Shown one piece after another: positions 10,734 through 26,416 of a DNA stretch of 64,000 nucleotides. The notes under the pieces were generated by a model. The model did not search any database and had not been told where the DNA came from. It worked only from the letters and a program-made list of their open reading frames with translations. The DNA is taken from positions 3,718,402-3,782,401 of the forward strand of contig NZ_CP036264.1 of NCBI RefSeq assembly GCF_008035925.1, written 5' to 3'. A program made the translations under genes and the position numbers. The first letter of the stretch is position 1; the number at the start of each line of letters is the position of its first letter. Source of the DNA: Stieleria maiorica. GTDB taxonomy: Bacteria > Planctomycetota > Planctomycetia > Pirellulales > Pirellulaceae.

Positions 10734-11354
10734 CTATGGTTGGTCGTTCTGGTCGATATAAATCCGGTCGCAGCGCAGCAACGCATCGCCATCGAAGATC
10801 ATGATCGCGTCGGCGGTGCACCCGACCAGCAGGTCCACGACGCTGCCCAATCCGCCACTGGGTTGGCGGATATCCTGCTTTCGGATCGTGGTCACGTGCT
10901 CCAATTCGTCGACCAAAATCGCACACTCGGGTTTTGCGGTTCCCAGAACCAACACCTGTGCGTCGCGCCGGGTTTCTCCCGACAAACCCAGGAAAGAACC
11001 GAGATCGATGATGGCAGTGATCTCGCCACGCAGATTGGTCAGCCCCAAGAAAAAATCGTCGGTATCGGGAATCGGCGTGATCGACTGCGGTTGCATCAGC
11101 GCCAACACGAACCGCGTTTCGATCGCCGCTTCTTCGCTACCGAGCCGAAACCGAACGACCTCGATCAACTCGCTCGTGTCGATCGCTCGATCGGGAATCC
11201 GCGCCAGCTGTCGTGACCGCTCGGCCATCAGCGCCTTAATCTGCGCTTCGTTCAAACTTTCGGCACTGCGGAGCGACTCCTGGGCGCGGGACAGACGCGC
11301 CTTGATCCCGGCCCAGTCGAATGGTTCCTTGCGCGATCCGTCATTCATCATCAT
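10734..11354 (-). CDS. CheW-family coupling protein with N-terminal extension (WspD-like)
   Basis: 206 residues. Three consecutive ATG codons (11354, 11351, 11348) are available. The first overlaps the cheR stop codon as ATGA, so translational coupling is likely. The CheW fold covers about 65-205, with the characteristic LTNLRGEITAIIDL segment and a C-terminal DGDALL strand. The 60-residue N-terminal extension contains ALMAERSRQLAR, the type of motif seen before the CheW domain in WspD and other long CheW proteins. It would link receptor and CheA. The presence of two different CheW genes flanking cheR reproduces the wspB-wspC-wspD arrangement. Assignment to CheW is firm; WspD equivalence is inference from size and order. 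Confidence 0.9.
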   Translation of the reverse strand: MMMNDGSRKEPFDWAGIKARLSRAQESLRSAESLNEAQIKALMAERSRQLARIPDRAIDTSELIEVVRFRLGSEEAAIETRFVLALMQPQSITPIPDTDDFFLGLTNLRGEITAIIDLGSFLGLSGETRRDAQVLVLGTAKPECAILVDELEHVTTIRKQDIRQPSGGLGSVVDLLVGCTADAIMIFDGDALLRCDRIYIDQNDQP

Positions 11355-12874
11355 GAATCTCGCCTCAACTCGATGCGGGAGAGTTGTGACTGGGCGGCCA
11401 CGGCGATCTCGGAGACGGTTTCACCATTGGACAGGGGCAAAACGTCATCGGCATCGCCCAGGGCGCACAATTCACAGACCCGACGGAAGTGTTTGCGTGC
11501 TGAATCATATTGTCCTCGCCGCAGCTGGATCGACGCAAACAGAAAATGACTCATCACCGAAGATCGATTCAGAAAAATCGCCTTTCGAATCGATTCCAGG
11601 GCCATCAGCGGCTGGTCCGCATCGGAAAGCAAGACGCCGTACAAGTAGTGCAGTTCCTCGACCAACGGATGACGCACGGTCGCCATTCGGCAAATCTCCG
11701 TGGCGCGACGCGGGTCGATCGCGGCGACCGCCTTGATCCTCACCAGGCAGGCTTCGGAATGATCGACCAGATCCTCCGTCAGCCTATCGGCCCGCGCAAA
11801 GTCACCGGCGTCCAAGGCCGCCACCGCCGCGGCGATCTTCCCGGCCGGCGTTGTCGGAGTGACCTCGCCGGGCGCGCGTTTTGCAAACACTCCCCTGGAA
11901 CGCGACGGTGTCGATGTGACTGCCAACGCTTTTTGCTGCGACGCAGTTTCGGGACGGTTGCTCGTGACATTCGACTCGCCGGTCGTTGCGTCACCCGGCC
12001 GTTGAACGCGGAATGTGTCTCCGGCGGGCTGACTCGACTGGCGTGGCACCTCCAAGCGACGACGATAGAAGACGCCCAGATCGCTGGACACCACTTCAAA
12101 TTCGGCGTGCCCGGCAAGCTGTGGATCGCCCGAAGCCGTGATCAGCCATCCGCCCGGCGCCAAGCACTGATACAACCGCCGACTGATCTCGCCGACGGTC
12201 TCAGACCCGAAATAAATCAACACATTGCGACAGAGGATCAGATCCATGTCGCAGGTTCCGCTGGCAGGCGACGGATATGTGTTGACAGCCAGATTCAAAC
12301 GATGAAACCGAACACGTCGTTTGATGCGTTCGTTCAACGTGTAGCGATCTCCCGAGACGCTTGCGAATGATCGAACCACATCGGATGCTTCGCCGCGAAA
12401 CGACCAGGGGCGGAACTCGGCCCGGCGAGCCTTCTCCAGCGCCGTGTTGGATAGATCGGTGGCCAAGATGGTCGAGGCCGATGAAACATGTTCCTGCGTG
12501 AACACGATCGCCAACGAATACGCCTCCTCACCCGACGCACATCCGGCCGACCACGCCCGAATCGGTTCGAGCGGACCACGACGCAATCGCAACTCGGGAA
12601 GCACCGTGTGGCGGATGAACTCGAAATGCTGTGGCTCGCGAAAGAAATAGGTTTCCCCGACCGTCAGTTGATCGATACAGTCGGACAGCAAGGGTGGACG
12701 TTTGGCCAAGGTCAATCGAAACTCCGCGTACCGGCCCACCCCGGCACGCTTCATCAGCTGCTGCAAGGTGGCCATCGTGTAACGGAGTTGATCCTCGCGG
12801 AATTTGATCCCGGTGTGCTTCGTCAACCATTTCAACAGGTTTCGAAACTCGGGATCATTTTCCGCCGCGTCCAT
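11351..12874 (-). CDS. cheR: chemoreceptor glutamate methyltransferase CheR with TPR-like C-terminus
   Basis: 507 residues. The N-terminal helical subdomain (1-80) ends in TVGETYFFREPQHFE. The SAM-binding site has WSAGCASGEEAYS (108-120), followed by ATDLS and ILCRNVLIYF, all diagnostic of CheR. After about residue 275 comes a Thr/Ser/Pro-rich linker, then a helical C-terminal half with TPR-like periodicity (LHYLYGVLLSDADQP and following). This matches WspC or FrzF-like CheR-TPR proteins rather than the short enteric CheR. It methylates receptor glutamates with SAM. The ATG shares one base with the preceding cheW stop (TGATG), and its own stop lies within the ATG run of the next cheW, so cheW-cheR-cheW form a translationally coupled unit. 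Confidence 0.95.
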   Translation of the reverse strand: MDAAENDPEFRNLLKWLTKHTGIKFREDQLRYTMATLQQLMKRAGVGRYAEFRLTLAKRPPLLSDCIDQLTVGETYFFREPQHFEFIRHTVLPELRLRRGPLEPIRAWSAGCASGEEAYSLAIVFTQEHVSSASTILATDLSNTALEKARRAEFRPWSFRGEASDVVRSFASVSGDRYTLNERIKRRVRFHRLNLAVNTYPSPASGTCDMDLILCRNVLIYFGSETVGEISRRLYQCLAPGGWLITASGDPQLAGHAEFEVVSSDLGVFYRRRLEVPRQSSQPAGDTFRVQRPGDATTGESNVTSNRPETASQQKALAVTSTPSRSRGVFAKRAPGEVTPTTPAGKIAAAVAALDAGDFARADRLTEDLVDHSEACLVRIKAVAAIDPRRATEICRMATVRHPLVEELHYLYGVLLSDADQPLMALESIRKAIFLNRSSVMSHFLFASIQLRRGQYDSARKHFRRVCELCALGDADDVLPLSNGETVSEIAVAAQSQLSRIELRRDS

Positions 12875-13338
12875 CAGCCCTGCTTCTCACTTGTCGGCGA
12901 CGACGACACGATGGATGCCAACGCGCTGCGGTCTTCGGCATCCAACAGGTCTGACGGAGTGAGCAGTTGGACAAAGCCCAGCGTGGTCTTGACGAGCTGT
13001 CCGGTCGGTGTGGCGGACTCGTCCCCGTCATCGGATGCCTCGGACTGCAGCGTCGCCAGATCGACCGCGCGATCGGCGTGCAACGCGTAGCGCAACCCGT
13101 CGTCGCGGATGATCACCAAATGATCCGTGTGGCGGACCGGCATCGCGGGGAGCCGCAGACACTTTCGCGTATCCAGAACCGGAACAACCTCGCCGCGCAG
13201 ATTGATGATCCCCATCACGGTTTCTGGCACTCGGGGCAAGGAAAGTGGCGTCACCGCACGGACGACTTCGACCACCAAATCGGCGGAAACCCCCAGCGGA
13301 CGCTCGTCGATTTCGAATACAAGAATGTTCTTTGCCAC
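12874..13338 (-). CDS. cheW: CheW coupling protein
   Basis: 154 residues, starting at GTG (13338), with GAGG seven bases upstream. It is a single CheW domain: ILVFEIDERPLGVSADLVVEVV at the start, then MGIINLRGEVVPVLDTR, the signature strand-turn-strand of the family. It connects the receptor to CheA. This is the first gene of the chemosensory cluster, so its promoter should lie in 13339-13532 or further upstream; I see no convincing sigma-70 boxes there. The C-terminal SSSPTSEKQG tail is unstructured. Overlap with cheR by one base indicates coupling. Confidence 0.93.
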   Translation of the reverse strand: MAKNILVFEIDERPLGVSADLVVEVVRAVTPLSLPRVPETVMGIINLRGEVVPVLDTRKCLRLPAMPVRHTDHLVIIRDDGLRYALHADRAVDLATLQSEASDDGDESATPTGQLVKTTLGFVQLLTPSDLLDAEDRSALASIVSSSPTSEKQG

Positions 13339-15053: not shown

Positions 15054-16100
15054 CTACAGCGTGCACATCTCGACGTTGTCGAAGTTTCTGCCGTAGTACT
15101 GCATGTATTGCACTTTGCGCTCGATCGCCTCAATCACATGCGCCGAAAAGTTGACCTTTTCGAATTGCTGGGCGCTGCCCAGCCCGCCGGGGCTGAACAC
15201 GTTGATTTCCATCAGTTTGTCACCGACGATGTCCAACCCGACCAGGAACATGCCGTCCTGGACCAACTTGGGGCGCACGATCTCGGCAATCCGGAGTGCG
15301 GTTTGATCGATTTCCGCGGCCGCTTTGGTCCCACCGGCGTGGATGTTGCTGCGCATGTCGCCGCCGCTGCGGACACGCCGAAACGCCGCATACTTGCGTT
15401 TCACACTCAGCGGGCGGCCGTTCATCACAAACAACCGCATGTCACCCTGTTCGGCGGCGGGCAAGAATTCCTGGGCGATGACGAACCCGTCTCGGCTGAC
15501 CGCGTCGATCATTTGATTCAGGTTGGGGATGTCTTCCGGACGCACCAAAAAGACGCTCGCCCCGCCGGACCCTTGCAACGGTTTGATGACGATCTTGCCC
15601 TGTTCGTGGGCAAAATGTTTGATGTCGTCGCGGTCGCGGGTGATCAGCGTTTTCGGACGAACCTCTTCGGGAAACAACTGAAAGTACATCTTGCTGGATG
15701 CTTGGGATAAACCGGTCGGATCGCTGAGCACGATCACCCCGTGCCGCATCGCCGTTCTTGCAAACTCACTGGCCGTGGTCGCGGCCCAAGGCCGAGACAA
15801 ATAGTCATCGGAGGGAACGTTCCTGAGCATCAACACGTCCAACTCATCGACCGTGATTCGACTGCGGATGGCCTTCTTGCCCTGCAAAACGGTGGTGTAG
15901 CTATCGGAAGTGCCGTACTTGGCCTTGGGAACCGATCGGGCGCGGGCACGGATCATCCCGTCCGGGTCATAGGCTAAATCCCCCACTCCCATGACCCAGA
16001 CTTCGTGTCCGCAATTGACCGCCGTATGTCCTAGACGGCTGGTCGTGAACTTCCCCTCTTCGGTCGCGACGTCGTTGACCAGAAAGCCGATGCGCATCAT
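15054..16100 (-). CDS. glutathione-synthetase-like ATP-grasp ligase, paralog 1
   Basis: 348 residues with the layout of prokaryotic glutathione synthetase. The N-terminal Rossmann part (MRIGFLVNDV) is followed by LRNVPSDDYLSRPWA (92-106), the ATP-grasp lysine and glycine loop IKPLQGSGGASVFLV (172-186), QEFLPAAEQGDMRLFVMNGRP (210-230) and the metal-binding end GLDIVGDKLMEINVFSPGGL (288-307). It should ligate a carboxylate to an amine with ATP, but the true substrate is unknown; GSH itself is doubtful because no gamma-glutamylcysteine ligase is nearby. It is close to identical in many blocks to the paralog at 18034. The start overlaps the preceding metallopeptidase stop (ATGATG). The conserved tail QYMQYYGRNFDNVEMCTL recurs in all three versions of the gene in this operon. 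Confidence 0.85.
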   Translation of the reverse strand: MMRIGFLVNDVATEEGKFTTSRLGHTAVNCGHEVWVMGVGDLAYDPDGMIRARARSVPKAKYGTSDSYTTVLQGKKAIRSRITVDELDVLMLRNVPSDDYLSRPWAATTASEFARTAMRHGVIVLSDPTGLSQASSKMYFQLFPEEVRPKTLITRDRDDIKHFAHEQGKIVIKPLQGSGGASVFLVRPEDIPNLNQMIDAVSRDGFVIAQEFLPAAEQGDMRLFVMNGRPLSVKRKYAAFRRVRSGGDMRSNIHAGGTKAAAEIDQTALRIAEIVRPKLVQDGMFLVGLDIVGDKLMEINVFSPGGLGSAQQFEKVNFSAHVIEAIERKVQYMQYYGRNFDNVEMCTL

Positions 16101-18034
16101 GTTCCCCTTTCTTTATTGATGAGATCAAGAATCGTTGTGCGAGGAGTGATCTGCTTTAATCGAAGCTGTGCCTCGGCGCGGTCGAGGTACCGCGGCCGAA
16201 GTGACGGCTCGCGTAAGATGCCTCGAAACAACAACTCACGAACGATCGGGACGTGTTCGACGGCGATCTTGCCGATCAACAATGGCTCGACCTCGCCACC
16301 GCTGCCCAAGTAATCCAGGATATCGACCAGTCCTTGCAGATACAGCGCATCCTTCGTTAATCCGCCGCCCCGGAACACACGCATCGTGATCGTGTACGCG
16401 GTCCGTGGCTCAAATCCGAACCCGTCGACCAGTTGTTCAAACACGCTCACAAAGCTCTCTCCGCCGATCAACTGGTCGACCGCAATCACCCGCGCCGCCA
16501 ATGTTCGCATTCGTGCTTCCCCCAAGCCGCCGACCAGGTATTCCGCCAGCACGGCCAGCCCCTCTTGCAACGCGTCGTAGCCGGACAATCCGATCTGCAG
16601 CAACCGCAGCGGTTGGCTTGCGGCGTTGAAATAGGTGACCAAATGCGTGCCGACTTCGTGTTGCAACAACGCATCGGCACGACGCTCGGCGATACGAGTT
16701 TCTCGGCCGATCAGCAACTCAGACCCTGACACCATCAATCCCGAAAACAGGTCGTCACGCAGACTGACTTTCGCCTGGAACGCGGGCGAGAGAGCCCGAT
16801 ATGATTCGATTTCCGCTTTCGCCCGTTCGGCGAAGGCGGGGGCGTCCAGCATCGACGGAGCTTGCGATGCTCCGTTGCGATCGGGTAGGGCTTGCAGGAC
16901 TGCGAACGCCAATTCGCGAAGCTTGGGCTTCACTCCCTGGAACACTTGCAAACTGCCCGGCAAGAAACGACGCGTTCCGATGTCTGCCAACATCGAAATC
17001 TGCCGATCCAGTTCGTATTGCGTCTGCCGGAGCACATAGGCCATCGTCGGATCGGGCACGCGTTCGGTCGCGATCTTCATCAACCGTCGTTTCAATAGCA
17101 ACGGATCGACGTCCAGCGGCCGGTACTGAAACACGGGCGTCTTGCGAAACCCGGATTCAGAATATTTTTCCCAAGCCCGCTCCGCGTTGATCGGTGTGAC
17201 CAGCAACAGAAACTTGAATTGCCCGCTCAAATCGGACAACTGGCGATCGATCACCAAGACCTGCTTGGACAGACGACTGTCACCGAGCGAGAAGTAGTGC
17301 TGCGGTCGCACCTCGGTTCGATTGAGCGCGAACGCAAAGAACCCTTTTTTCAGTGAATGGGAAACATCGCGAATAAACGACCTTGCAACGCGATCGTAAA
17401 CGTCGCCCGATTCCGGATCGCGATAGACCGGCCGGACCTCCATCCCCAAGATGTGACATCCGATTTTGGTTTCCACTTCCTCGGACATCAACGACGACAT
17501 TCCGGGCGGGTGGTTTTCCGCGTGCATGTTGACTTCCACGGCCGCCTTTTTCCGGTGCAGACTGATCTGCTGCAACGAAAACTGCAACGTCGCCACCGTG
17601 CCTTCGGGGCGATGTGGCCGCCGTGTCAACAATCGAAACGCCGGTCGCGGCAATTCGACCTCGCCGGTCGACGCGTCGTACTCCGCGTGATCTTCACCGG
17701 ACCAGATTTCCAGGATCAGAAACGCGCCCAGACGCTCGATCGCTGTTTCAGCCACTCGACGGACGAGCCGTTTTAATCCTTTGCGCTCCGTCGCGGTCCC
17801 CGGGGCACACAAGAATGACGCCTCGGACATCACCAGCCGCGCGGTTCCTTCATCGCGCCGCCGAGGGTTACGGCGATAGACGCACAGAAACGGCAACAGG
17901 CGATCCATCTGCAGCATGCCACCGCCGGGCAACGGCTGCCGTACGCGTTTGTCTTCGGCCAAACGTTGACAAACACGTTCGATGACCGAATCGCTAATCA
18001 CTTCCTCACGTTCGGGAGCTTCAGATCGCAACAT
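16097..18034 (-). CDS. QEGLA-motif (DUF1704/MATCAP-like) metallopeptidase, paralog 1
   Basis: About 645 residues from the ATG at 18034, which shares one base with the preceding ligase stop (TGATG). A GTG four codons earlier is the alternative. The protein has HEVGTH at 459-464 and QEGLA at 490-494, about 31 residues later. This is the signature of the 'flavohemoglobin expression-modulating QEGLA motif' family, which in eukaryotes includes the MATCAP tubulin tyrosine carboxypeptidases. By analogy HExxxH would bind zinc and the QEGLA glutamate would be the third ligand. The N-terminal third is beta-rich with FLCVYRR. No signal peptide, so cytoplasmic. Function in bacteria is not established; from context it acts on something made by the adjacent ATP-grasp ligases. 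Confidence 0.82.
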   Translation of the reverse strand: MLRSEAPEREEVISDSVIERVCQRLAEDKRVRQPLPGGGMLQMDRLLPFLCVYRRNPRRRDEGTARLVMSEASFLCAPGTATERKGLKRLVRRVAETAIERLGAFLILEIWSGEDHAEYDASTGEVELPRPAFRLLTRRPHRPEGTVATLQFSLQQISLHRKKAAVEVNMHAENHPPGMSSLMSEEVETKIGCHILGMEVRPVYRDPESGDVYDRVARSFIRDVSHSLKKGFFAFALNRTEVRPQHYFSLGDSRLSKQVLVIDRQLSDLSGQFKFLLLVTPINAERAWEKYSESGFRKTPVFQYRPLDVDPLLLKRRLMKIATERVPDPTMAYVLRQTQYELDRQISMLADIGTRRFLPGSLQVFQGVKPKLRELAFAVLQALPDRNGASQAPSMLDAPAFAERAKAEIESYRALSPAFQAKVSLRDDLFSGLMVSGSELLIGRETRIAERRADALLQHEVGTHLVTYFNAASQPLRLLQIGLSGYDALQEGLAVLAEYLVGGLGEARMRTLAARVIAVDQLIGGESFVSVFEQLVDGFGFEPRTAYTITMRVFRGGGLTKDALYLQGLVDILDYLGSGGEVEPLLIGKIAVEHVPIVRELLFRGILREPSLRPRYLDRAEAQLRLKQITPRTTILDLINKERGT

Positions 18035-19077
18035 CACAGCGTACACAGATCAACGTTGTCGAAGTTCCGCCCGTAATATTGCATGTAGTTCGCTTTGCGT
18101 TCGAGCGCGGCGATCACGTAGCGGTTGAAGTTGATCTTGGTAAACTTCTGGGCACTCCCCAGACCACCGGGGCTGAACACATTGATCTCCATCAGCTTGT
18201 CGCCGACGATATCCAAACCGACCAGAAACATGCCGTCCTGGACCAGTTTCGGACGCACGATCTCCGCAATTTTCAGTTCCACCTCCCCGATTTCCGCGGC
18301 CGCTAGTTTTCCGCCTGCGTGGATGTTGCTGCGCATGTCGCCGCCGCTTCGGACGCGGCGGAACGCGGCGTATTTGCCCTTCACCTGCAACGGTCGCCCG
18401 TTCATGATGAACAGCCGCGTGTCGCCGTCGGCCGCGGCAGGCAAATACTCTTGGGCGATCACAAAGCCGTCGCGGCTGACCGCGTCGATCATCTGATTCA
18501 GGTTCGGAATGTCGCTTTCGGTGACCAGGAACACGCTGGCCCCGCCGGAACCCTGCAGCGGTTTGAGCACGCAGCGGCCCTCTGCTTTGGCAAAGTCTTT
18601 GATCTCGTCGCGGTCTCGCGTGATCAGCGTTCGTGGCCTCACCTCCTCGGGGAACAACTGAAAATACATCTTGGTCGATGCCTTGGCCAAACCGTTGGGG
18701 TCGTTCACCACGATCACGCCGTGACGCATCGCGACGCGTCCGAATTCGGCGGCCGACGAGGATGCCCAGGGCCGTTTCAAGTAATCATCCGACGGCACGT
18801 TACGGAGCATCAGCACGTCCAGATCGTCGACCGTGATCCTTGACTTGACCGACTTTTGACCCTGCAGGTCCTTCAGGTACGCTTCGTGGTTCCCGTACTT
18901 TTTCTGCGGCACGCTGCGGGCCCGAGCGCGGATCGATTCGTCCGGATCGTAGGCGAAATCGCCGACCCCGATGACATAGACTTCGTGCCCCTGATTGACC
19001 GCTTCACAGCCCAGACGCGTCGTCGAATAACCCGCCTCCTCGGTCAAAACGTCGTTGACAACAAATCCAATCTTCAT
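18034..19077 (-). CDS. glutathione-synthetase-like ATP-grasp ligase, paralog 2
   Basis: 347 residues, closely similar along its whole length to the ligase at 15054: MKIGFVVNDVLTEE at the start, LKPLQGSGGASVFLV for the nucleotide, GLDIVGDKLMEINVFSPGG for metal, and the same tail NYMQYYGRNFDNVDLCTL. AGGCGGA lies before the ATG. Differences cluster in the 60-80 region and near 255-275, where substrate or partner contacts could differ. Its stop codon supplies the first base of the next gene's ATG. Two nearly identical ligases each paired with one QEGLA peptidase suggest duplication of a peptidase-ligase cassette. Product unknown; peptide or amino-acid ligation is the most likely chemistry. Confidence 0.85.
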   Translation of the reverse strand: MKIGFVVNDVLTEEAGYSTTRLGCEAVNQGHEVYVIGVGDFAYDPDESIRARARSVPQKKYGNHEAYLKDLQGQKSVKSRITVDDLDVLMLRNVPSDDYLKRPWASSSAAEFGRVAMRHGVIVVNDPNGLAKASTKMYFQLFPEEVRPRTLITRDRDEIKDFAKAEGRCVLKPLQGSGGASVFLVTESDIPNLNQMIDAVSRDGFVIAQEYLPAAADGDTRLFIMNGRPLQVKGKYAAFRRVRSGGDMRSNIHAGGKLAAAEIGEVELKIAEIVRPKLVQDGMFLVGLDIVGDKLMEINVFSPGGLGSAQKFTKINFNRYVIAALERKANYMQYYGRNFDNVDLCTL

Positions 19078-19113
19078 CGATCCGCCTTTGGGTCTGGAGA
19101 ATAGGAAACAGCA

Positions 19114-19233
19114 TTAATGTGTGGCCAGTTCCACGTTGCTAAAGTTGCGCCGGTAGAAACGCATGTAGTCAACTTTTCCTCCCAGCGACTCGAGCACCGC
19201 GTGGGTGAAATTGACGACGATTCCCATTCGCAT
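19114..19233 (-). pseudogene. 39-codon micro-ORF joining both ends of a third ATP-grasp gene
   Basis: The frame starts MRMGIVVN, matching the first eight residues of the two neighbouring ligases, and continues directly with FTHAVLESLGGKVDYM and RFYRRNFSNVELATH, matching their last 31 residues. About 310 codons are missing between, in frame, with intact start and stop. The start overlaps the upstream peptidase stop as TGATG, exactly as in the intact gene pairs, so coupling would still deliver ribosomes. It is either an internally deleted ligase gene or a retained small peptide made of the conserved tail. I call it a pseudogene conservatively. It lies 36 bases before the intact paralog 2. Confidence 0.7.
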
Positions 19234-21203
19234 CACGCACCGCCGTTCGTCTTGTGTTCGTTCGTCTGGAGTTGCTTGACCAGATCGACGACCGAGCAAG
19301 TGCTGCCCCGCAATCCGGCCAAACGGGCGACGGCCACCGGATCCTCCATGTAACGCGGCGTGATCGGCGCCTTGCTGAGTACACCGCGGTATTGCAGTTC
19401 TTTGATAATCGGAATGTGCTTGACCGCCATTTTGCCGACCAAGAGTGGATCCAAGTCGCCTCCTTTCTGCACGTATTTTAAGATCGCAACCAATCCGCGC
19501 AGATAAACGCAATCCTTCGTCAAACCGCCACCACGGTAGACCCGCATCACGACGTTGTACGCCGCCCGTTTGCTCAAGCCGAATTCACCGTGAATCGAAC
19601 GATAGTTCTCGACAAACGATGCGCCTTCGGCCATCTGACGCACCGCGACCACGCGGGCCCCCAACTGCCGCATCCGCGAAACGGTCAGTCCACCGACCAG
19701 ATACTCCGACAACACCGCCAGCCCCTCTTGCAATTCTTCATAGCCGGCCAAACCCGAATAGAGTTGTTGAAACGGCTGCAATCGGCCGTTGTAATAGGTC
19801 ACCAGGTGCGTCCCGACTTCATGGGCCAACAATGCCGCCACACGATCTTCGGCGAGCGATAGATCGGTATTCACCATCAGTTTGCCGCGAGAAACGATCA
19901 ACCCGCTCGCTTCGTCGGAGATGACGACCCTTGCCTTGAACTCCGGACAACTGCCGCGGTAATGGTCGATCTCTCGCTGGACACATTGGGCGAATCGTTT
20001 GGCGGAAAACATCTGCGGCTTTCCCGCCGGATTCTTCGACGGCAACGTCGTCAACAATTCCTTCGCGACGCCCAGCACGCTGTCGCTGACGCCGCCGAAC
20101 AACGCCACACTCAGATGTTTGAATCGTGGCGTGTCACGGTCCCGGAGCATCGTCAGCTTCAGTTCCAGCTCCTCCTGTTTTTCCTCGAACAGACGCTGCA
20201 ACGTGGGGTCTTCGACGCGTTCGATCGGAATCTTGTACAACTGGCGTTTCAGCAACGCCGGATCGACCGGCAGTGGACGATAATGGAATTCGGGAGGATG
20301 CTCGCAGTGTCCGGCTTCAAACTCCTTCCAGGCGCTGGTCGGATTGACCGGTGTCAGTTGGACCAGGTAGTCGAACTGGTTGCTGACCTCGGCCAGTTGA
20401 CGGTCGATGTCCCAGACCGCTTTGACAACCGCTTTTCGCCCTAGTGTGTGAAAGTGGGGCGGGCTGTGTGTCGTACGGTCACAAGCGAACTGATAATAAG
20501 CGTGCCGAAGCGAGACGCTCAGACTCCGGCGCAATTGCCCCATCAGCAAGGGGAACTTGATCGCGGAGCCGGCTTTTCGAAACACCGGTGGAACCACCAA
20601 TCCGATCTGCCAACAATTCGCCGCCCGAGCGCGTGCGGCATCGATCAGAGGTTTCATGTCCGGCGGATAGCCGTTGACGCCTCGCTGGACGTGAACTTCG
20701 ACACCCTGTTTGAGCACCTTGGTTTTCTGCAAACGCTTTCGAAACGCTTCGACCGTGTTGTCCAATTTGGCCGTGCCGGGGGCGCGGATCGTGAAGCTGG
20801 GCAACACCGTAGGAACTGCAGGATCGTTGGCTTTGCCGCCATCGGGCGCCGACCAGAGCTCGACAATCAGGAACGCACCAAATTCTGCCGACAACGTTTC
20901 GACGACCGTCCCGACCAGTTCGGTAAGACCGCCATGGAATTCCGCTCCACCCGAACCGATCAGATACGACGCTTCACCACGCACCAATTGCTCGGTTCCG
21001 GGGTCCTCGTCCTCGGGCGGTTGGCGGTACACACACAAGAACGGGACTTGCCGATCGATGTGCACGCGGCCCTTGTGCGGTAGCGTCCGGCGGACACGCA
21101 CGTTTCGCGACAATCGATCTCGGACGGCCTGGATCAAGGAGCGGGGCAAATCGCTCGCGCCGGCTTCGTCCATCTTTCTCATTCCGGGGGTGGTCGTGGA
21201 CAT
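19233..21203 (-). CDS. QEGLA-motif (DUF1704/MATCAP-like) metallopeptidase, paralog 2
   Basis: 656 residues from the ATG at 21203, four bases after the preceding gene's stop. It has HEVGTHLVTYYNG with the zinc site at 461-466 and QEGLAVLSEYLVGGL at 492-506, spaced as in paralog 1. The flanking sequence YSGLAGYEELQEGLAVL is shared as well. The proteins diverge more in the N-terminal 350 residues, where paralog 2 has an extra acidic stretch (PPEDEDPGTEQ). No signal peptide or membrane segment. Predicted metallo-carboxypeptidase or peptidase by kinship with MATCAP; the substrate is not known. It starts the part of the operon whose following ligase has been reduced to the 39-codon remnant. Confidence 0.82.
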   Translation of the reverse strand: MSTTTPGMRKMDEAGASDLPRSLIQAVRDRLSRNVRVRRTLPHKGRVHIDRQVPFLCVYRQPPEDEDPGTEQLVRGEASYLIGSGGAEFHGGLTELVGTVVETLSAEFGAFLIVELWSAPDGGKANDPAVPTVLPSFTIRAPGTAKLDNTVEAFRKRLQKTKVLKQGVEVHVQRGVNGYPPDMKPLIDAARARAANCWQIGLVVPPVFRKAGSAIKFPLLMGQLRRSLSVSLRHAYYQFACDRTTHSPPHFHTLGRKAVVKAVWDIDRQLAEVSNQFDYLVQLTPVNPTSAWKEFEAGHCEHPPEFHYRPLPVDPALLKRQLYKIPIERVEDPTLQRLFEEKQEELELKLTMLRDRDTPRFKHLSVALFGGVSDSVLGVAKELLTTLPSKNPAGKPQMFSAKRFAQCVQREIDHYRGSCPEFKARVVISDEASGLIVSRGKLMVNTDLSLAEDRVAALLAHEVGTHLVTYYNGRLQPFQQLYSGLAGYEELQEGLAVLSEYLVGGLTVSRMRQLGARVVAVRQMAEGASFVENYRSIHGEFGLSKRAAYNVVMRVYRGGGLTKDCVYLRGLVAILKYVQKGGDLDPLLVGKMAVKHIPIIKELQYRGVLSKAPITPRYMEDPVAVARLAGLRGSTCSVVDLVKQLQTNEHKTNGGA

Positions 21204-21207
21204 CGTT

Positions 21208-21999
21208 TTAAATCAGCTGAGGACGGTTTAAGGCGTCCATGACAAACGGCACCGAGAATTGAAGGGCACGCGAAATGGCATCGACGGCGGATGGGTCCGG
21301 CTGACCGGTCCACTCGTCCATGAAGAACTTTTTGAACTCGATGGCGATCGCGACGCCGGTCGTCGGAAACGTCTCATGAATCCATCGCGGCCAGTTCCCG
21401 CCACGAAACTTGACGTTCTCCCGGACGTCCAGCCGTCCGCCGGGAAAGTCAAATTCTCGCAGTGCACCGATCAGCGCATCCACCACATGGCCCCATCGAT
21501 GTCGGTCCATCGTTCCGGTGCCGATGTTGACCTGGGGATTGGCTTCGGGGTCGGCAACCTCGCCGTCCGGCCCGGCACGTCGATGGTTGTAGGTGTGTAA
21601 GTCGTACAGCACGAAGTGGCCCTGTTCGATCACGATCCGGGTCAACAGTTCGTGCATCGCATGGTAGAACGCGTCGTACTCGCTCAGCGATTTGGCGAAC
21701 ATCTCGTCGGCCGGATTGTCTTTCCAAACCGTCAGTCCCCAGGCGTCCTCGGGGGTTCGGTAAACCGCTTTCTCACGAGGACGATTCAAGTCGACTTCGA
21801 ACCGTGACCGCAAACCGATCACACGCGTGGGAACACAGTTCGTCCAAACACCGGTGAACGGGTCTTCTTCTCGTAGCCGGCCGAGATCGTCCAGCTTGAT
21901 GTGTGACATCACATCGTCACGCAACGCGTGCCCGTCGTGGACGGCCGTTGCCACCAACGGACCATCGCCACGCTCCGATGTCCAAATCTGATCGACCAT
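21208..21999 (-). CDS. N-formylglutamate amidohydrolase-like enzyme
   Basis: 263 residues from MVDQIWTSER; GGGGGA lies about ten bases upstream of this ATG, which is why I prefer it to the ATG nine codons earlier. The family (PF05013-type) pattern is visible: an N-terminal metal motif VHDGH (H21, H24), then YDLHTYNHRR, VNIGTG and a C-terminal IAIEFKKFFMDEWTG with the conserved acidic residue. In histidine catabolism HutG-type members release formate from N-formylglutamate, but no hut genes are here. Being first in an operon of ATP-grasp ligases and QEGLA peptidases suggests it hydrolyses an acyl- or amino-acyl-glutamate made or processed by them. Cytoplasmic; moderately confident in family, not in substrate. 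Confidence 0.75.
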   Translation of the reverse strand: MVDQIWTSERGDGPLVATAVHDGHALRDDVMSHIKLDDLGRLREEDPFTGVWTNCVPTRVIGLRSRFEVDLNRPREKAVYRTPEDAWGLTVWKDNPADEMFAKSLSEYDAFYHAMHELLTRIVIEQGHFVLYDLHTYNHRRAGPDGEVADPEANPQVNIGTGTMDRHRWGHVVDALIGALREFDFPGGRLDVRENVKFRGGNWPRWIHETFPTTGVAIAIEFKKFFMDEWTGQPDPSAVDAISRALQFSVPFVMDALNRPQLI

Positions 22000-22412
22000 T
22001 CCGCTTTTCCCCCGAGACGTGATCATGCCAGGCGCGAAACGTGAGCCAGGGGGCTTGGTGTCCCTGACTTGCGCGTGCGGGCTAAATCAACCGACCGATG
22101 TGCGGTTTCGTCACCGCCGACAGGTCCGACCGTTGTGCACGCATACGCCATGCCAGAATGCCGACCCGCGTGAGGATCGCTCGACTCTGCGAACGCTTGG
22201 GTAAGCATCCGTCAACGGATGACCGGCGGCGACGCTGGGGGCCGGCCCGAGAAATCTCAGCGTGATCCCATCGTGGTGCACGCCACTGGAAAATATTTTT
22301 CTACCGGCGGTCATCCGATTGCCACCGTCCGCTACCGGGTTCGATCGCAGCTTCGGATGCGTTCTTCGGCAGGGCCGGTTCGGTCGGCGTGACGATTGGC
22401 AGTTCACCCCTG
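22000..22412. other. intergenic region upstream of the ligase/peptidase operon
   Basis: About 413 bases. It must contain the operon promoter on the minus strand. Positions 22059-22084 carry a degenerate piece of the same repeat that forms the hairpin at 53157-53220. AT-rich gaaaatatttttct at 22290-22304 stands out from the GC-rich background and could be part of a promoter. No gene or RNA is recognised. Confidence 0.5.
22059..22084. repeat. remnant of an AGCCCG-type intergenic repeat
   Basis: The reverse complement reads tagcccgcacgcgcaagtca followed by gggaca. It aligns to agcccgacgcgtaagcgagg gac at 53157 with small differences. Only one arm is present, so it cannot fold into the hairpin seen at the other site. 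Confidence 0.4.
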
Positions 22413-23804
22413 CTACTGCGGCGGATTCAGTCGAAACCGAACTTTCGTGGCGCTATCGTTCTTCATCTCCAGAACCTCCGCGACAGCCCCTTCCAACTCG
22501 ATACGGTCACCCTGAGTGAGAATCTTTTGGTGATAGTCCATCAACATGCCGCTGATCGTGTCGGCCTCGTCGGACTCGTTCAGCGGGATTGCCAGCCGAC
22601 GTCGCACCTCATCGATTGACGTCGTGCCGTTGACGAGGAACTGGTCCCTTCCCTCGGGTACGATGTTTGGATCGGCGTTGTCGAATTCGTCGTCCACTTC
22701 ACCGACGATCCGCTCCAACACGTTTTCCAGGGTGACGATTCCCGTGATCGTGCCATATTCGTCGATCACAAACGCCAGCAATTGATGCGTGGCTTGGAAG
22801 TGCCGCAGCACCTTGCTGATCGGCATCGTCTCATGGACCTTCTTGGGAGGGCGAATGATGCTTCTGACATCGAACTGGGCGTCTGTTTCGGGGACGGTCA
22901 ACAGGTCCTTGATGTGCACCACCCCCAACACCTTGTCCAGCGACCGATCACACACCGGGTAGCGTGTGTGCATCGTGGTCCGCACCAGTTCACGGAGCTT
23001 GGAAATCGGTTCGTTGACGTCGAAAAAGACAACGTCCCCGCGAGGCAACATCACCCGCCGGACGATCAAATCGTCGAACTCAAACACGTTGTTAATCAGC
23101 CGGTGTTCACTGCGGGTCAGGTTGCCGTGAACATGCGCTTCGGTCAGCAGCGCGCGGATCTCCTCCTCCGTGCTGACCGATTCGTGATCCGACGCTCCCC
23201 GAATGCCCACCAACGTCAAGAGAAACGTGGTGACGACATTCAGAATCGTCAAAAACGGATATAGCACCGCGTAGAAGAATTTCAGCGGGATCGCGCACCA
23301 CAACAGAACCTGTTCGGGACGGCGGATCGCAAAGATCTTGGGGAATTGTTCGCCGGCAACCAGGTGCAACCCGGTGATCACCGAAAACGCGATCGCGAAT
23401 CCGATCACCTTGATCACCGCTTCATCGGTCACCCCCACCCATCCCAGCATCGGTTCGACCAGCTTCGAAAACGCCGGTTCGCCGACCCAGCCGAGTGCCA
23501 GCGAGGCCATCGTGATGCCCAGTTGGCAGGCCGACAGCGATTCGTCCAACCGCTCGGCCAGCCAGCGCGCCGTCCCGGCAAACAGCTTTCCCTCACGAGC
23601 GAGCTGGTCGATCCGCGACACACGCACTTTGACAAGCGCGAATTCGGCGGCCACGAAAAAGCCGTTCAACACGATCAGAAAGACCGCGATCGCAAGAAAC
23701 AGCAACGTCCGGCCGCTGCCACCCGATTCGGCGCCCGTCACGTGGGAACCGACCTCGCCATACAACGCCGATCCAATGAAAAAGAAACCGAGTGATCCGA
23801 TCAT
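22413..23804 (-). CDS. CNNM/CorC-type membrane protein with CBS pair (hemolysin family)
   Basis: 463 residues from MIGSLGFFFIGSALYG. The open frame runs 161 codons further upstream through low-complexity repeat DNA and that part is rejected. A DUF21/CNNM transmembrane domain spans about 35-220 (ALVKVRVSRIDQLA, AFAIAFSVITGLHLVAGEQFPK), then a CBS pair (about 236-360: MLPRGDVVFFDVNEPI, FVIDEYGTITGIVTLENVLE) and a CorC/HlyC C-terminal domain (about 380-460) starting FLVNGTTSIDEVRRRL. Such proteins move or sense magnesium or cobalt and sit in the inner membrane; the hemolysin label is historical. Domain set complete. Single-gene unit next to a long repeat field. Confidence 0.9.
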   Translation of the reverse strand: MIGSLGFFFIGSALYGEVGSHVTGAESGGSGRTLLFLAIAVFLIVLNGFFVAAEFALVKVRVSRIDQLAREGKLFAGTARWLAERLDESLSACQLGITMASLALGWVGEPAFSKLVEPMLGWVGVTDEAVIKVIGFAIAFSVITGLHLVAGEQFPKIFAIRRPEQVLLWCAIPLKFFYAVLYPFLTILNVVTTFLLTLVGIRGASDHESVSTEEEIRALLTEAHVHGNLTRSEHRLINNVFEFDDLIVRRVMLPRGDVVFFDVNEPISKLRELVRTTMHTRYPVCDRSLDKVLGVVHIKDLLTVPETDAQFDVRSIIRPPKKVHETMPISKVLRHFQATHQLLAFVIDEYGTITGIVTLENVLERIVGEVDDEFDNADPNIVPEGRDQFLVNGTTSIDEVRRRLAIPLNESDEADTISGMLMDYHQKILTQGDRIELEGAVAEVLEMKNDSATKVRFRLNPPQ

Positions 23805-24006
23805 GCGTTTTGACGAGTGGAAAGGGAGGGGGGGAGATAAGAAGAAGCTGCGGGTTCCAAGCCGCGGCATTATACGCTTCGCCTGAGATGCGCGAAATCG
23901 CCGGGCCTGCATCAACCAATCTCGACCAATCCGATTCCGCGATCGACCACGGACGAACATGTGACGGTCGGGCATGGAGGCACAGCGGACATCCGCCGGT
24001 TCGCCA

Positions 24007-24364
24007 GCGGCCGCTGTTCCAGTAGCCCGCTGCGGAGATCGGGTAAGAAGATTTGGGGGGTAAGAAAATGACGAATCACACCATCCATTCCATCTAGCCA
24101 ATCTTCCTACCTTCGAAATTCCACTCACTTCGCCCACCCTGCCAACCCACCGGGGACAGACCCCAGACCGCCGCGGCAGACCACCGGGGACAGACCCCAG
24201 ACCACCGCGGCCGCTGTTCCAGTAGCCCGCTGCGGAGATCGGGTAAGAAGATTTCGGGGTAAGAAAATGACGAATCACACCATCCATTGCATCTAGCCAA
24301 TCTTCCTACCTTCGAAATTCCACTCACTTTGCCCACCCCTGCCATCCCACCGGGGACAGACCCC
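24007..24364. repeat. direct repeat, two copies of about 160 bases with a 200-base period
   Basis: Copy 1 (24007-24164) and copy 2 (24207-24364) both start gcggccgctgttccagtagc and end ccggggacagacccc. They are identical apart from a few single-base changes and one-base indels. A third, partial copy (24427-24485) retains cctaccttcgaaattccac through cggggacagacccc. The near identity implies a recent tandem duplication. Confidence 0.85.
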
Positions 24365-24543
24365 AGAGCACCGGGGACAGACCCCAGGCGATCGGGGACA
24401 GACCACCGGGGCAGACCCCAAGACCACCTACCTTCGAAATTCCACCCACTCCGCCCACCCTGCCATCCCGCCGGGGACAGACCCCGGACGATCGGGGACA
24501 GACCCCGGGGCGGCCGTCCCGGGGCGATCGGGGACAGACCCTG
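24150..24543. repeat. array of about nine GGGGACAGACCCC mini-hairpins
   Basis: The 13-base core ggggacagacccc (GGGG/CCCC stem, acaga loop) or a one- or two-base variant starts near 24152, 24187, 24352, 24372, 24394, 24408, 24472, 24494 and 24529, often within accggggacagaccccag. It resembles REP-type elements mobilised by IS200-like REP-associated transposases. No such transposase lies in this window. Confidence 0.75.
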
Positions 24544-24849
24544 GGGCGGCCTCGGGATCGTTCGGCCATGGGCCGTTCACACCCGTATGCCTTGGGCATC
24601 GCCCAAGGTCCACATGAAAACCGAGATCAATTGGCCAACGGCGATCCACAGACTGGCCGTCGAGTTGCACGCCGCCGGAAGGCGAAAACACGCCTGCTCA
24701 CAAAACTAGCAATTCCGGGATTTCTGCTTAGCGACTAAGCACGTTCAGGAGGCACTGTCCAAGTTGAGCCAATCTGTATTTTTTTCTTGGGTTTTTAAAT
24801 CGTTACCCAGAAACACGTTGCGCCACCAAGGTGGGCATCTGACGAGTCA

Positions 24850-24866: not shown

Positions 24867-25045
24867 AACTCAGTGCCACCGATGTGGATGCCACACCATT
24901 AAGCCCGCTTTCGACTCTTGAGCATCGTGATAGATGGCCCAGGTAGGAGTTTCCGGCGGCTTGGTTGCTGGCCGATCGAGTGTGCGTCCCGGCGTATCCG
25001 GGACCACTCAACCTATTTCCCAATTTCGAGAAGGTTTGGAATCGA

Positions 25046-26416
25046 ATGTCTAAGTTATTGCGAGCACCACTGCTCACAGGTTTGGTTTTTGCGGGGGCAT
25101 TGTGTCTAGGAGCGGTCTTCACCCCCGAGGTGATGGCCCAAGCCGAAGAGGCGGTCGCGGAAAGCGCCTATTCGTCCGAAGAGTACGTCGCATCGGACGG
25201 CTACGCCGTGTTTGCGGTCAACAACTTGTGGATCTGCATTTCCGCCGCCCTGGTGTTCATCATGCACCTCGGGTTCACGACCCTGGAAGCGGGTCTGACG
25301 CAGAAAAAGAACGCCGTCAACATCATCTTCAAGAATGTCTGGATCGTCTGCACGGGTATCTTGCTGTACGCGATGTGGGGCTTCAACGCGATGTACCCCG
25401 GCGACTTCAACGGCTACTTCGCGATGGGCAGTTGGTTCGGCGCGTCGCTGAACGACGTGTCGATGACGACGGCCGACTACAACGCCGGGTACACCTGGTG
25501 GGGTGACTTCATCTTCCAAGCGATGTTCGCTGCGACCGCCGCGACGATCGTCTCCGGTGCCGTTGCCGAACGCGTCAAGCTGCCGACGTTCATGCTGTTC
25601 TCGACCCTTTTGGTCGGTTTCGCCTATCCGATCATCGGCAGCTGGAAGTGGGGCGGCGGCTGGTTGGATCAAATGGGATTCTATGACTTCGCCGGTTCCA
25701 GCATCGTGCACGCGTTCGGCGGTTTCGCGGCTCTGGCCTGTGTTCTGCTGCTCGGCCCGCGTACCGGCAAGTACACCGAAAGCGGCATCAAGCCGATCGT
25801 CGGTCACAGCATGCCGTTGGCCGTCATCGGCGTGTTCCTGCTGTGGTTGGGTTGGTTCGGATTCAACGGCGGATCGGCCCTTTCGGCGGATCCCAAAGCA
25901 GTCTCCTACGTGTTTGTGACCACCAGCCTTGCAGCTGCAGCCGGTGCGATTTCGTCGATCGTCGGATCGTACGTGCTGTTGAAGAAACCTGACGTGTCGA
26001 TGGCACTCAACGGGATCCTGGCCGGTCTGGTCGGCATCACGGCCGGAGCGGACACCGTCGGTGAGGAATCGTCGATCGTGATTGGTGCGATCGCAGGTCT
26101 GTTGGTCGTCGTCGCGATCCTCGGATTCGACAAGATCAAGATCGACGATCCGGTCGGGGCAATTTCGGTTCACGGCGTGTGCGGCATCTGGGGCACCGTC
26201 GCCGTCGGCATCTTCTCGATGGACGCCAGCCACAGCTTCGTCACCCAACTGATCGGCACCTTGGCCATCGGCGGTTTCGCGTTCGCGTTCTCCGCGATCG
26301 TCTTCGGAATCCTGAAGGTCACGCTCGGTGTTCGAGTCAGCCTGGAAGAGGAAACCCTCGGATTGGACATCAGTGAACACGGCATGGCTGCCTACAACGG
26401 TTTCGAAACCGCTTGA
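25046..26416 (+). CDS. amt: ammonium transporter (Amt family)
   Basis: 456 residues from MSKLLRAPLL; 27 further codons are open upstream but lack Amt features, and GGA precedes the chosen ATG. Residues 1-31 form a signal peptide as in many bacterial Amt proteins, followed by eleven membrane helices. Both pore histidines are present: H222 in GSSIVHAFGG and H376 in VHGVCGIWGT. Other Amt signatures are FAATAATIVSGAVAERVK and WGGGWL. It transports ammonium/ammonia across the inner membrane. No glnK/PII gene follows, which is unusual because amt and glnK are often paired. Probably monocistronic, with a hairpin at 26490. Expected regulation is nitrogen limitation, supported only by the sigma-54-like site. 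Confidence 0.95.
   Translation: MSKLLRAPLLTGLVFAGALCLGAVFTPEVMAQAEEAVAESAYSSEEYVASDGYAVFAVNNLWICISAALVFIMHLGFTTLEAGLTQKKNAVNIIFKNVWIVCTGILLYAMWGFNAMYPGDFNGYFAMGSWFGASLNDVSMTTADYNAGYTWWGDFIFQAMFAATAATIVSGAVAERVKLPTFMLFSTLLVGFAYPIIGSWKWGGGWLDQMGFYDFAGSSIVHAFGGFAALACVLLLGPRTGKYTESGIKPIVGHSMPLAVIGVFLLWLGWFGFNGGSALSADPKAVSYVFVTTSLAAAAGAISSIVGSYVLLKKPDVSMALNGILAGLVGITAGADTVGEESSIVIGAIAGLLVVVAILGFDKIKIDDPVGAISVHGVCGIWGTVAVGIFSMDASHSFVTQLIGTLAIGGFAFAFSAIVFGILKVTLGVRVSLEEETLGLDISEHGMAAYNGFETA

What the first reader, a model, noticed from the sequence alone, without database searches (positions are those of the whole stretch)
15054..21999. Ligase/peptidase operon that resembles a bacterial tyrosination-type cycle
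The sequence shows a coupled operon of an N-formylglutamate-amidohydrolase-like enzyme, two QEGLA (MATCAP-like) HExxxH peptidases and two glutathione-synthetase-like ATP-grasp ligases. Known: MATCAP enzymes remove the C-terminal tyrosine of tubulin, and tubulin tyrosine ligase is an ATP-grasp enzyme that puts it back. Inference: the bacterial operon could add and remove a residue on a small molecule or protein tail, with the amidohydrolase trimming an acyl group. No substrate gene is obvious. The one-base stop/start overlaps (TGATG) show strong co-expression.
Basis: partly seen in the sequence, partly recalled or inferred. Interest (0 to 1): 0.7.

Follow-up and report, generated by a model that had tools for sequence, protein, structure and literature searches.

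The report
Bacterial MATCAP peptidase–ligase–amidohydrolase operon
Many bacteria carry a fixed set of three enzymes (one that adds an amino acid, a relative of the animal enzyme that clips tubulin tails, and an acyl-cutting enzyme), which looks like a make-and-break cycle on an unknown small peptide, possibly used when cells meet low salt.

Summary
The window carries an FGase (21208-22026), a MATCAP/QEGLA peptidase (19233-21203), a GshB-like ATP-grasp ligase (18034-19077), a second peptidase (16097-18046) and a second ligase (15054-16100) on the minus strand.

The linkage is real and old: 67 of 80 related loci hold all three gene types, and their ligases come from 15 phyla. Only the long peptidase form is firmly linked; of 14 short-form loci one has a sub-cut-off ligase, 13 none.

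New here: the long form's N-terminal part is a degenerate FGase domain; in some genomes an FGase domain is fused to the peptidase.

Best reading: an amidoligase/carboxypeptidase cycle on a short N-blocked peptide, working like RimK/RimB or Rlo but a member of neither. Neighbouring MscS, CorA and CNNM genes and published low-salt induction in a Photobacterium suggest a hypo-osmotic or ion role. Nothing points to tyrosine. Substrate unknown; no activity shown.

The parts
21208..22026 (-). FGase-family (PF05013) amidohydrolase, 272 aa; family-conserved active-site-type residues kept
   Evidence: H30, E53, N81, R82, H144, E230 conserved in 73 of 73 rows; AF2 pLDDT 93.8; best solved match 2q7s, an FGase
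19233..21203 (-). Peptidase 1: degenerate FGase-like domain (about residues 20-245) plus MATCAP/QEGLA metallopeptidase domain (about 293-625)
19114..19233 (-). 39-codon relic of a third ATP-grasp ligase (about the first 8 and last 31 codons left; 912-bp in-frame deletion)
18034..19077 (-). Ligase 1: GshB-like ATP-grasp, NF009110/PRK12458 type
16097..18046 (-). Peptidase 2: same two-domain architecture as peptidase 1 (likely ATG start at the TGATG overlap near 18034)
15054..16100 (-). Ligase 2: GshB-like ATP-grasp, in a separate paralogue clade from ligase 1
22413..24287 (-). Neighbour, not part of the core: CNNM/CorC-type transporter, 387 bp upstream on the same strand; this gene type lies near the module in 7 of 40 loci

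Best explanation
The operon encodes an ATP-driven make-and-break cycle. One or more GshB-like ATP-grasp ligases add amino acids to the C-terminal carboxylate of a short peptide or amino-acid derivative; the MATCAP peptidase takes a C-terminal residue off; the FGase removes an N-acyl (or amide) block from the same compound or its breakdown product. The FGase-like N-terminal domain of the peptidase is a catalytically dead descendant of an FGase once fused to it, now probably a binding or docking domain. Several paralogous ligases per operon would give several residues or product lengths. The product most likely serves in hypo-osmotic or ion (Mg2+, polyamine) adjustment. Shown: gene linkage, conserved catalytic residues, fusions, homology of the dead domain. 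Inferred: same substrate, direction of each reaction, small peptide rather than protein, osmotic role.
For: Linkage: 16 of 18 over-cut-off ligases in 149 genomes of the window's phylum have PF08014 within 5 kb, 13 of 18 an FGase within 6 kb; in 229 genomes of the class of G149, 12 of 14 ligase genomes carry PF08014, in all 12 on the same contig beside the ligase; 67 of 80 loci hold all three. Fusion: FGase and MATCAP in one ORF with a ligase beside it in L069, L163, L174, L175, FGase motifs kept in these 4 of 4; in the 2 fusions without a ligase in the stretch (L164, L176) the His of D-x-H-x-Y-N is lost. Dead domain: HHalign of the peptidase N-terminus against the FGase family prob 85, E 6e-6 (one comparison), C-terminal control prob 0.1; the FGase His is Trp117 in 93 of 101. 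MATCAP site: H, E, H, E in 101 of 101; best solved fold human MATCAP 7z5g. Role: MscS 21 genes in 13 of 40 loci against 0.67 expected, CorA 7 v 0.16, CNNM 7 v 0.42; QEGLA gene 27.5x and near-numbered 'GshB' 38.4x up at low salt in Photobacterium damselae (PMC10308900, passages).
Against: No substrate, product or activity is known to me for any member. Solo ligases exist: G135:C20 and G130:C120 over the cut-off, three in G154, and below the cut-off G380 and G398 and G018, so a ligase can work without the peptidase nearby. L145 (in G154) has the peptidase with neither partner within about 10 kb on each side. A short-form MATCAP (L070) has a sub-cut-off ligase about 1.1 kb away, so the short/long split is not perfect. 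The fold match of peptidase 1 to FGase is weak and of the same rank as unrelated folds. CNNM is the only one of the five neighbour types beside this operon in the window. Those types were chosen after seeing the clusters, observed counts used local HMMs while expected ones used Pfam, and relatives are not independent. The published induction is in one species whose own locus I did not read.
Confidence: 0.55

Rival explanations
1. The ligases are ordinary glutathione synthases of these organisms and the other genes are glutathione-turnover enzymes.
For: Nearest solved relative is E. coli GshB 1gsa; database names say glutathione synthetase; in the window genome the other NF009110 matches reach only 81.9 bits, and it has a GCS2 gene. 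The Photobacterium ligase passes one GshB model (PRK05246 291.7 v 272).
Against: Both window ligases miss the TIGR01380 equivalog cut-off (196.2 and 194.9 v 299.05) and PRK05246 (211.6 and 209.9 v 272). G149 and G150 hold both a module ligase and a protein at 439.5 and 435.5 bits to TIGR01380. The GCS2 gene fits the YbdK subfamily (302.3 v 176.4) and misses the glutamate-cysteine ligase cut-offs. Two or three ligase paralogue clades per operon are not expected for glutathione.
Confidence: 0.15
2. A protein C-terminal tagging cycle, functionally like tubulin tyrosination or RimK/RimB glutamylation of ribosomal protein S6, with a housekeeping protein as target.
For: MATCAP and ATP-grasp are the two halves of the tubulin cycle (peptidase side: PMC10499314 passages; ligase side recalled); RimB can cleave C-terminal glutamates from S6 that RimK adds (PMC12239564, passages). 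A housekeeping target would explain why no substrate gene was seen beside the operon.
Against: FGase-family enzymes act on small N-acyl amino acids in known cases (recalled); the separate FGase keeps its residues in 73 of 73, which fits a small metabolite better. No TTL-family match.
Confidence: 0.2
3. The operon degrades an imported blocked peptide (scavenging), the ligase making a carrier conjugate.
For: 51 of 80 loci have one peptidase and one FGase for one ligase, that is two hydrolases to one ligase; transporters are common neighbours.
Against: The neighbour transporters that I classified (among ten cluster representatives) are channels and Mg2+-type transporters, plus one amino-acid-permease/SLC12 type, not peptide importers; extra ligase copies argue for synthesis.
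Confidence: 0.1

Closest known systems
RimK/RimB (ATP-grasp ligase plus peptidase on the ribosomal protein S6 C-terminus)
   Same: ATP-grasp ligase co-transcribed with a peptidase that can reverse it (PMC12239564 passages)
   Different: RimB is a retropepsin-like aspartic peptidase; here the peptidase is a MATCAP metallopeptidase with an FGase gene or domain; ligases do not reach the RimK cut-off (64.3 and 65.6 v 143.4)
Rlo operon of Pseudomonas (RloA peptidase, RloB inactive transglutaminase, RloC ATP-grasp)
   Same: Peptidase plus ATP-grasp operon with a hypo-osmotic phenotype; loss of RloB or RloC rescues loss of the peptidases at low osmolarity (PMC12239564 passages); a dead enzyme domain is part of the system
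   Different: Different, secreted peptidase family; no FGase named in the passages seen
Eukaryotic MATCAP/TMCP and tubulin tyrosine ligase
   Same: Same peptidase family and metal site; opposing ATP-grasp ligase
   Different: Ligase is of GshB type, no TTL match; extra FGase-like domain; no tubulin; the best scores to the PF08014 model belong to short forms, not to these long forms
Glutathione synthase GshB
   Same: PF02951/PF02955 domains
   Different: Window ligases are below the GshB equivalog cut-offs; module ligases coexist with GshB in two genomes checked
N-formylglutamate deformylase HutG
   Same: PF05013 family
   Different: 22.9 bits v cut-off 278.75; here a regular partner of ligase and MATCAP

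Membership tests
MATCAP peptidases (PF08014) | Profile score and HExxxH plus distal Glu metal site | tested here: met
   308.9 and 309.7 bits v 27; H461, E462, H466, E493 in 101 of 101 aligned
MATCAP peptidases (PF08014) | C-terminal carboxypeptidase activity | not testable with these tools
   no assay; activity seen by me only for eukaryotic members (PMC10499314 passages)
Glutathione synthase GshB (TIGR01380) | Equivalog score | tested here: not met
   196.2 and 194.9 bits v 299.05
PRK12458-type 'glutathione synthetase' (NF009110) | Subfamily score | tested here: met
   439 and 452.6 bits v 408
FGase (PF05013) | Profile score and fold | tested here: met
   62.2 v 28.9 bits; 2q7s E 3e-13, TM 0.72
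HutG N-formylglutamate deformylase (TIGR02017) | Equivalog score | tested here: not met
   22.9 v 278.75 bits
RimK/RimB system | RimK-family ligase with retropepsin-like RimB | tested here: not met
   TIGR00768 64.3 and 65.6 v 143.4 bits; the peptidases match only PF08014 at E<=0.001
Tubulin tyrosination cycle | TTL-family ligase | tested here: not met
   no TTL family among Pfam matches at E<=0.001
Tubulin tyrosination cycle | Opposing add/remove reactions on one C-terminus | not testable with these tools
   needs purified enzymes

The most novel reading that the evidence does not exclude
A widespread, perhaps unnamed bacterial C-terminal tagging cycle in which a MATCAP carboxypeptidase and GshB-like ligases write and erase residues on an N-blocked peptide (or a protein tail) to set turgor or Mg2+/polyamine balance at low salt, with a dead FGase domain as the substrate reader; it would be the prokaryotic logic from which the tubulin-tail cycle's peptidase was drawn.
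Probability: 0.3. Interest if true: 0.85.

Novelty: new variant of a known kind. Interest (0 to 1): 0.62.

Why it matters
Bacterial members carry labels such as 'flavohemoglobin expression-modulating QEGLA' and 'glutathione synthase'. If the module is one system, many such labels mislead (including, by inference, a reported low-salt 'GshB' response), and a tractable host exists: Sinorhizobium meliloti 1021 carries a copy on pSymB. It would give a third peptidase class paired with an ATP-grasp ligase, beside RimB and RloA, and a bacterial setting for the enzyme family that edits tubulin tails.

Tried and rejected
Ordinary glutathione pathway: rejected as main reading. HutG-type deformylation: rejected as family label. 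Every bacterial MATCAP belongs to the system: rejected; of 14 short-form loci held with wider flanks (L070, L072-L076, L186-L193) 13 have no ligase or FGase by local HMM and L070 has a sub-cut-off ligase. Substrate gene travelling with the operon: none seen among clusters of ORFs of 90 aa or more; ten cluster representatives were classified. Promoter and terminator scan: no more hits than in shuffles. Short-form MATCAP (one protein) against solved structures: no match at E<=0.01, so kinship of eukaryotic MATCAP with either bacterial form was not settled. Rhodopirellula baltica stress paper PMC2754498: 'glutathione' does not occur in the main text; passages seen. PMC3091676 (passages): the V. 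vulnificus clade-2 gene list has COG3930 (VV2_1203) next-numbered to 'glutathione synthetase' (VV2_1204), without comment in the passages seen. Paper searches gave no hits; others (40 of 48 listed; 10 of 48 listed) gave listings, of which I opened passages of seven papers. None of the passages described the three-gene link, but most subscription papers are not held; Iyer et al. 2009 on amidoligases (not held) may list such neighbourhoods, so I do not claim that the link is absent from print.
Full report
What is there. The window lies in a 9.9-Mb single-contig genome; its ligase 1 is 97% identical to that of 'Planctomycetes bacterium TBK1r', so it is, by inference, a Pirellulaceae-type planctomycete. 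On the minus strand, in order of transcription: FGase 21208-22026, peptidase 1 19233-21203, relic 19114-19233, ligase 1 18034-19077, peptidase 2 16097-18046, ligase 2 15054-16100. TGATG overlaps can be read at three junctions.

The relic. The gap between peptidase 1 and ligase 1 holds a 39-codon ORF whose ATG overlaps the stop of peptidase 1. Its first codons match the start of a ligase and the remaining ~31 the end: 82% identity over its length to the corresponding ligase of L077, L078 and L082, 77% to that of L079. A DNA alignment with L077 and L078 shows one gap of 912 bases, a multiple of three; in the relatives similar words (GTGAAC and GTCAAC) stand at the two edges. L077, L078 and L079, the closest relatives, have FGase, peptidase, ligase, ligase, peptidase, ligase. 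The three ligases fall in three separate clades; the lost one belongs with a nine-row clade with 100/100 support.

Linkage in the same phylum. Of 149 genomes, 29 have PF08014 and 9 a ligase over the NF009110 cut-off; all 9 have PF08014 (hypergeometric p 1.3e-7). 16 of 18 such ligases have PF08014 within 5 kb and 13 of 18 an FGase within 6 kb. FGase itself is common: 50 of 149 genomes have PF05013.

Linkage elsewhere. Of these 80, 67 have ligase and FGase within 3 kb, 9 ligase only, 1 FGase only, 3 neither; of the 13 incomplete ones, 8 end at a contig edge within about 0.7 kb of the peptidase, while L110, L125, L129, L132 and L145 have at least 3.5 kb on both sides, and L145 lacks both partners. 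The ligases of these loci come from 15 phyla by their record names, most of them metagenome-assembled genomes. In 229 genomes of the class of G149 (a Sedimenticola record, so Gammaproteobacteria), 35 have PF08014 and 14 a ligase at E<=1e-90; 12 are shared (p 1.9e-9), side by side in all 12. I fetched 20 loci from 20 of these 35 genomes: 11 of 12 long-form loci have the ligase, 0 of 8 short-form loci have ligase or FGase. In the window's phylum 5 short-form loci (L072-L076) have none, and one (L070) has a ligase-type gene below the cut-off (303 bits) about 1.1 kb away and no FGase. On plasmids, the ligase matched 123 records (E<=1e-60) and the peptidase 116 (E<=1e-30), 79 of each from Sinorhizobium; annotated records show the order N-formylglutamate amidohydrolase, QEGLA, glutathione synthase, and S. 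meliloti 1021 pSymB has the same three ORFs.

The dead FGase domain. Peptidases of this class have some 265-290 residues before the MATCAP domain; no Pfam family matched there in the two window proteins. A profile of this part (92 of 100 rows used) against the FGase family gave probability 85, E 6e-6 for the single comparison over 167 columns; the MATCAP part as a control gave 0.1. AF2 models are confident (FGase pLDDT 93.8; peptidase 1 91.0). The best solved matches to peptidase 1 are human MATCAP 7z5g (E 2e-8), then a lipoprotein 3u24 (E 1e-3), then the FGase 2q7s (E 5.9e-3, TM 0.43 by target); nucleoside phosphorylases follow at similar E-values and the output does not say which part aligned, so the fold search supports the sequence result only weakly. 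The FGase family keeps H30, E53, N81, R82, H144 and E230 in 73 of 73; at the HHalign-matched place of H144 the peptidases have Trp in 93 of 101. The matched stretch starts only at FGase residue 87, so the fate of H30 and E53 is not settled. In six proteins an FGase domain sits in the same ORF as MATCAP, at the place of the dead domain: L069, L163, L164 (Pfam), L174, L175, L176 (local HMMs). The four with an adjacent ligase keep the HxGH, EED, LNR and DxHxYN motifs (L069 and L163 by eye; L174 and L175 by pattern); in L164 the His of DxHxYN is Tyr, in L176 it is Arg and LNR is LNL, and neither has a ligase in the stretch (whole genome of L176 none at E<=1e-90; L164 is a plasmid, its chromosome was not searched). 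Six is a small number and L174/L175 look like near-duplicates.

Not glutathione synthase. The window ligases miss the GshB equivalog cut-offs. Genomes G149 and G150 hold both a module ligase and a protein at 439.5 and 435.5 bits to TIGR01380; other genomes were not checked this way. The Photobacterium ligase passes one GshB model (PRK05246, 291.7 v 272) but fits NF009110 far better (487.9), which may explain 'GshB' labels.

What it may do. Representatives of neighbour clusters were identified by Pfam as MscS channels, CorA, MgtE, CNNM, amino-acid permease/SLC12, histidine kinase and Usp, among others. Against whole-genome densities in 40 genomes (216 Mb) the 659 kb of flanks hold MscS 21 genes in 13 of 40 loci (0.67 expected; 18 in 12 without three weak L141 hits), CorA 7 (0.16) and CNNM 7 (0.42), one of them in this window. 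MgtE (2 clear and 2 weak loci) and SLC12 (7 loci) were counted without an expectation; 21 of 40 loci have at least one of the five types, so 19 have none. Limits are given in the Against line. In Photobacterium damselae, the QEGLA gene RS17025 and the near-numbered 'GshB' RS17020 rise 27.5 and 38.4 fold at 1% against 3% NaCl (PMC10308900, passages); in Photobacterium sp. DA100 the ligase sits directly before the FGase-MATCAP fusion. Brackish genomes more often than marine ones have a mechanosensitive-channel gene, and lower-salinity biomes more often two Mg2+-uptake systems (PMC10219603, passages), gene types like those seen here as neighbours.

Mechanism. GshB-type ligases form an amide on a C-terminal carboxylate (recalled); eukaryotic MATCAP enzymes remove C-terminal residues (PMC10499314 passages). 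Together with an FGase this reads as a cycle on an N-blocked peptide. The Rlo operon gives a genetic model: loss of rloB or of the ATP-grasp gene rloC rescues loss of the peptidases at low osmolarity (PMC12239564, passages). The substrate remains unknown.

Verdict. New variant of a known kind (ligase/peptidase amide cycles), with a different peptidase class and a dead-enzyme domain.

Noticed in passing
window 22413-24287 and 24965-26416: CNNM/CorC-type transporter (closest NCBIfam model is polyamine exporter PaeA, 219 bits, below its cut-off of 500) and an ammonium transporter upstream of the operon.
   Followed up: partly
window 24007-24544: Direct repeats of 36-84 nt built on GGGGACAGACCCC, two 83-nt copies 98% alike; they lie in or next to the predicted start of the CNNM ORF, whose true start is probably further downstream.
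   Followed up: no
L158 / L173 (G000:C1 about 5903684-5906339): A second, different operon in the same genome: FGase, GCS2-like carboxylate-amine ligase and RimK-like ATP-grasp.
   Followed up: partly
L171 (G154:C1:1426409-1428069): A solo module-type ligase directly beside an MscS channel gene, with no peptidase or FGase found in the 14 kb held.
   Followed up: partly
L066, L080, L089, L115: Other loci have split or truncated ligase ORFs beside the module (e.g. G130:C144 with an internal stop), so ligase copies may decay often; draft sequence errors are not excluded.
   Followed up: no
L070 (G065:C516): A short-form MATCAP with a sub-cut-off ligase-type gene about 1.1 kb away and no FGase: possible link of the short form to a different ligase.
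   Followed up: partly
L001 (G000:C1:8837442-8838512): A third, short-form MATCAP gene in the same genome; no module ligase or FGase in the 4 kb held. Its partners, if any, are unknown.
   Followed up: partly
FGase model, PDB 3a9l: The FGase model also resembles phage poly-gamma-glutamate hydrolase (E 7e-4), a weak hint that gamma-linked glutamate could be the substrate.
   Followed up: no
window 10734-13338: Minus-strand ORFs that look like CheW- and CheR-type chemotaxis proteins by eye (label from reading, no family search).
   Followed up: no
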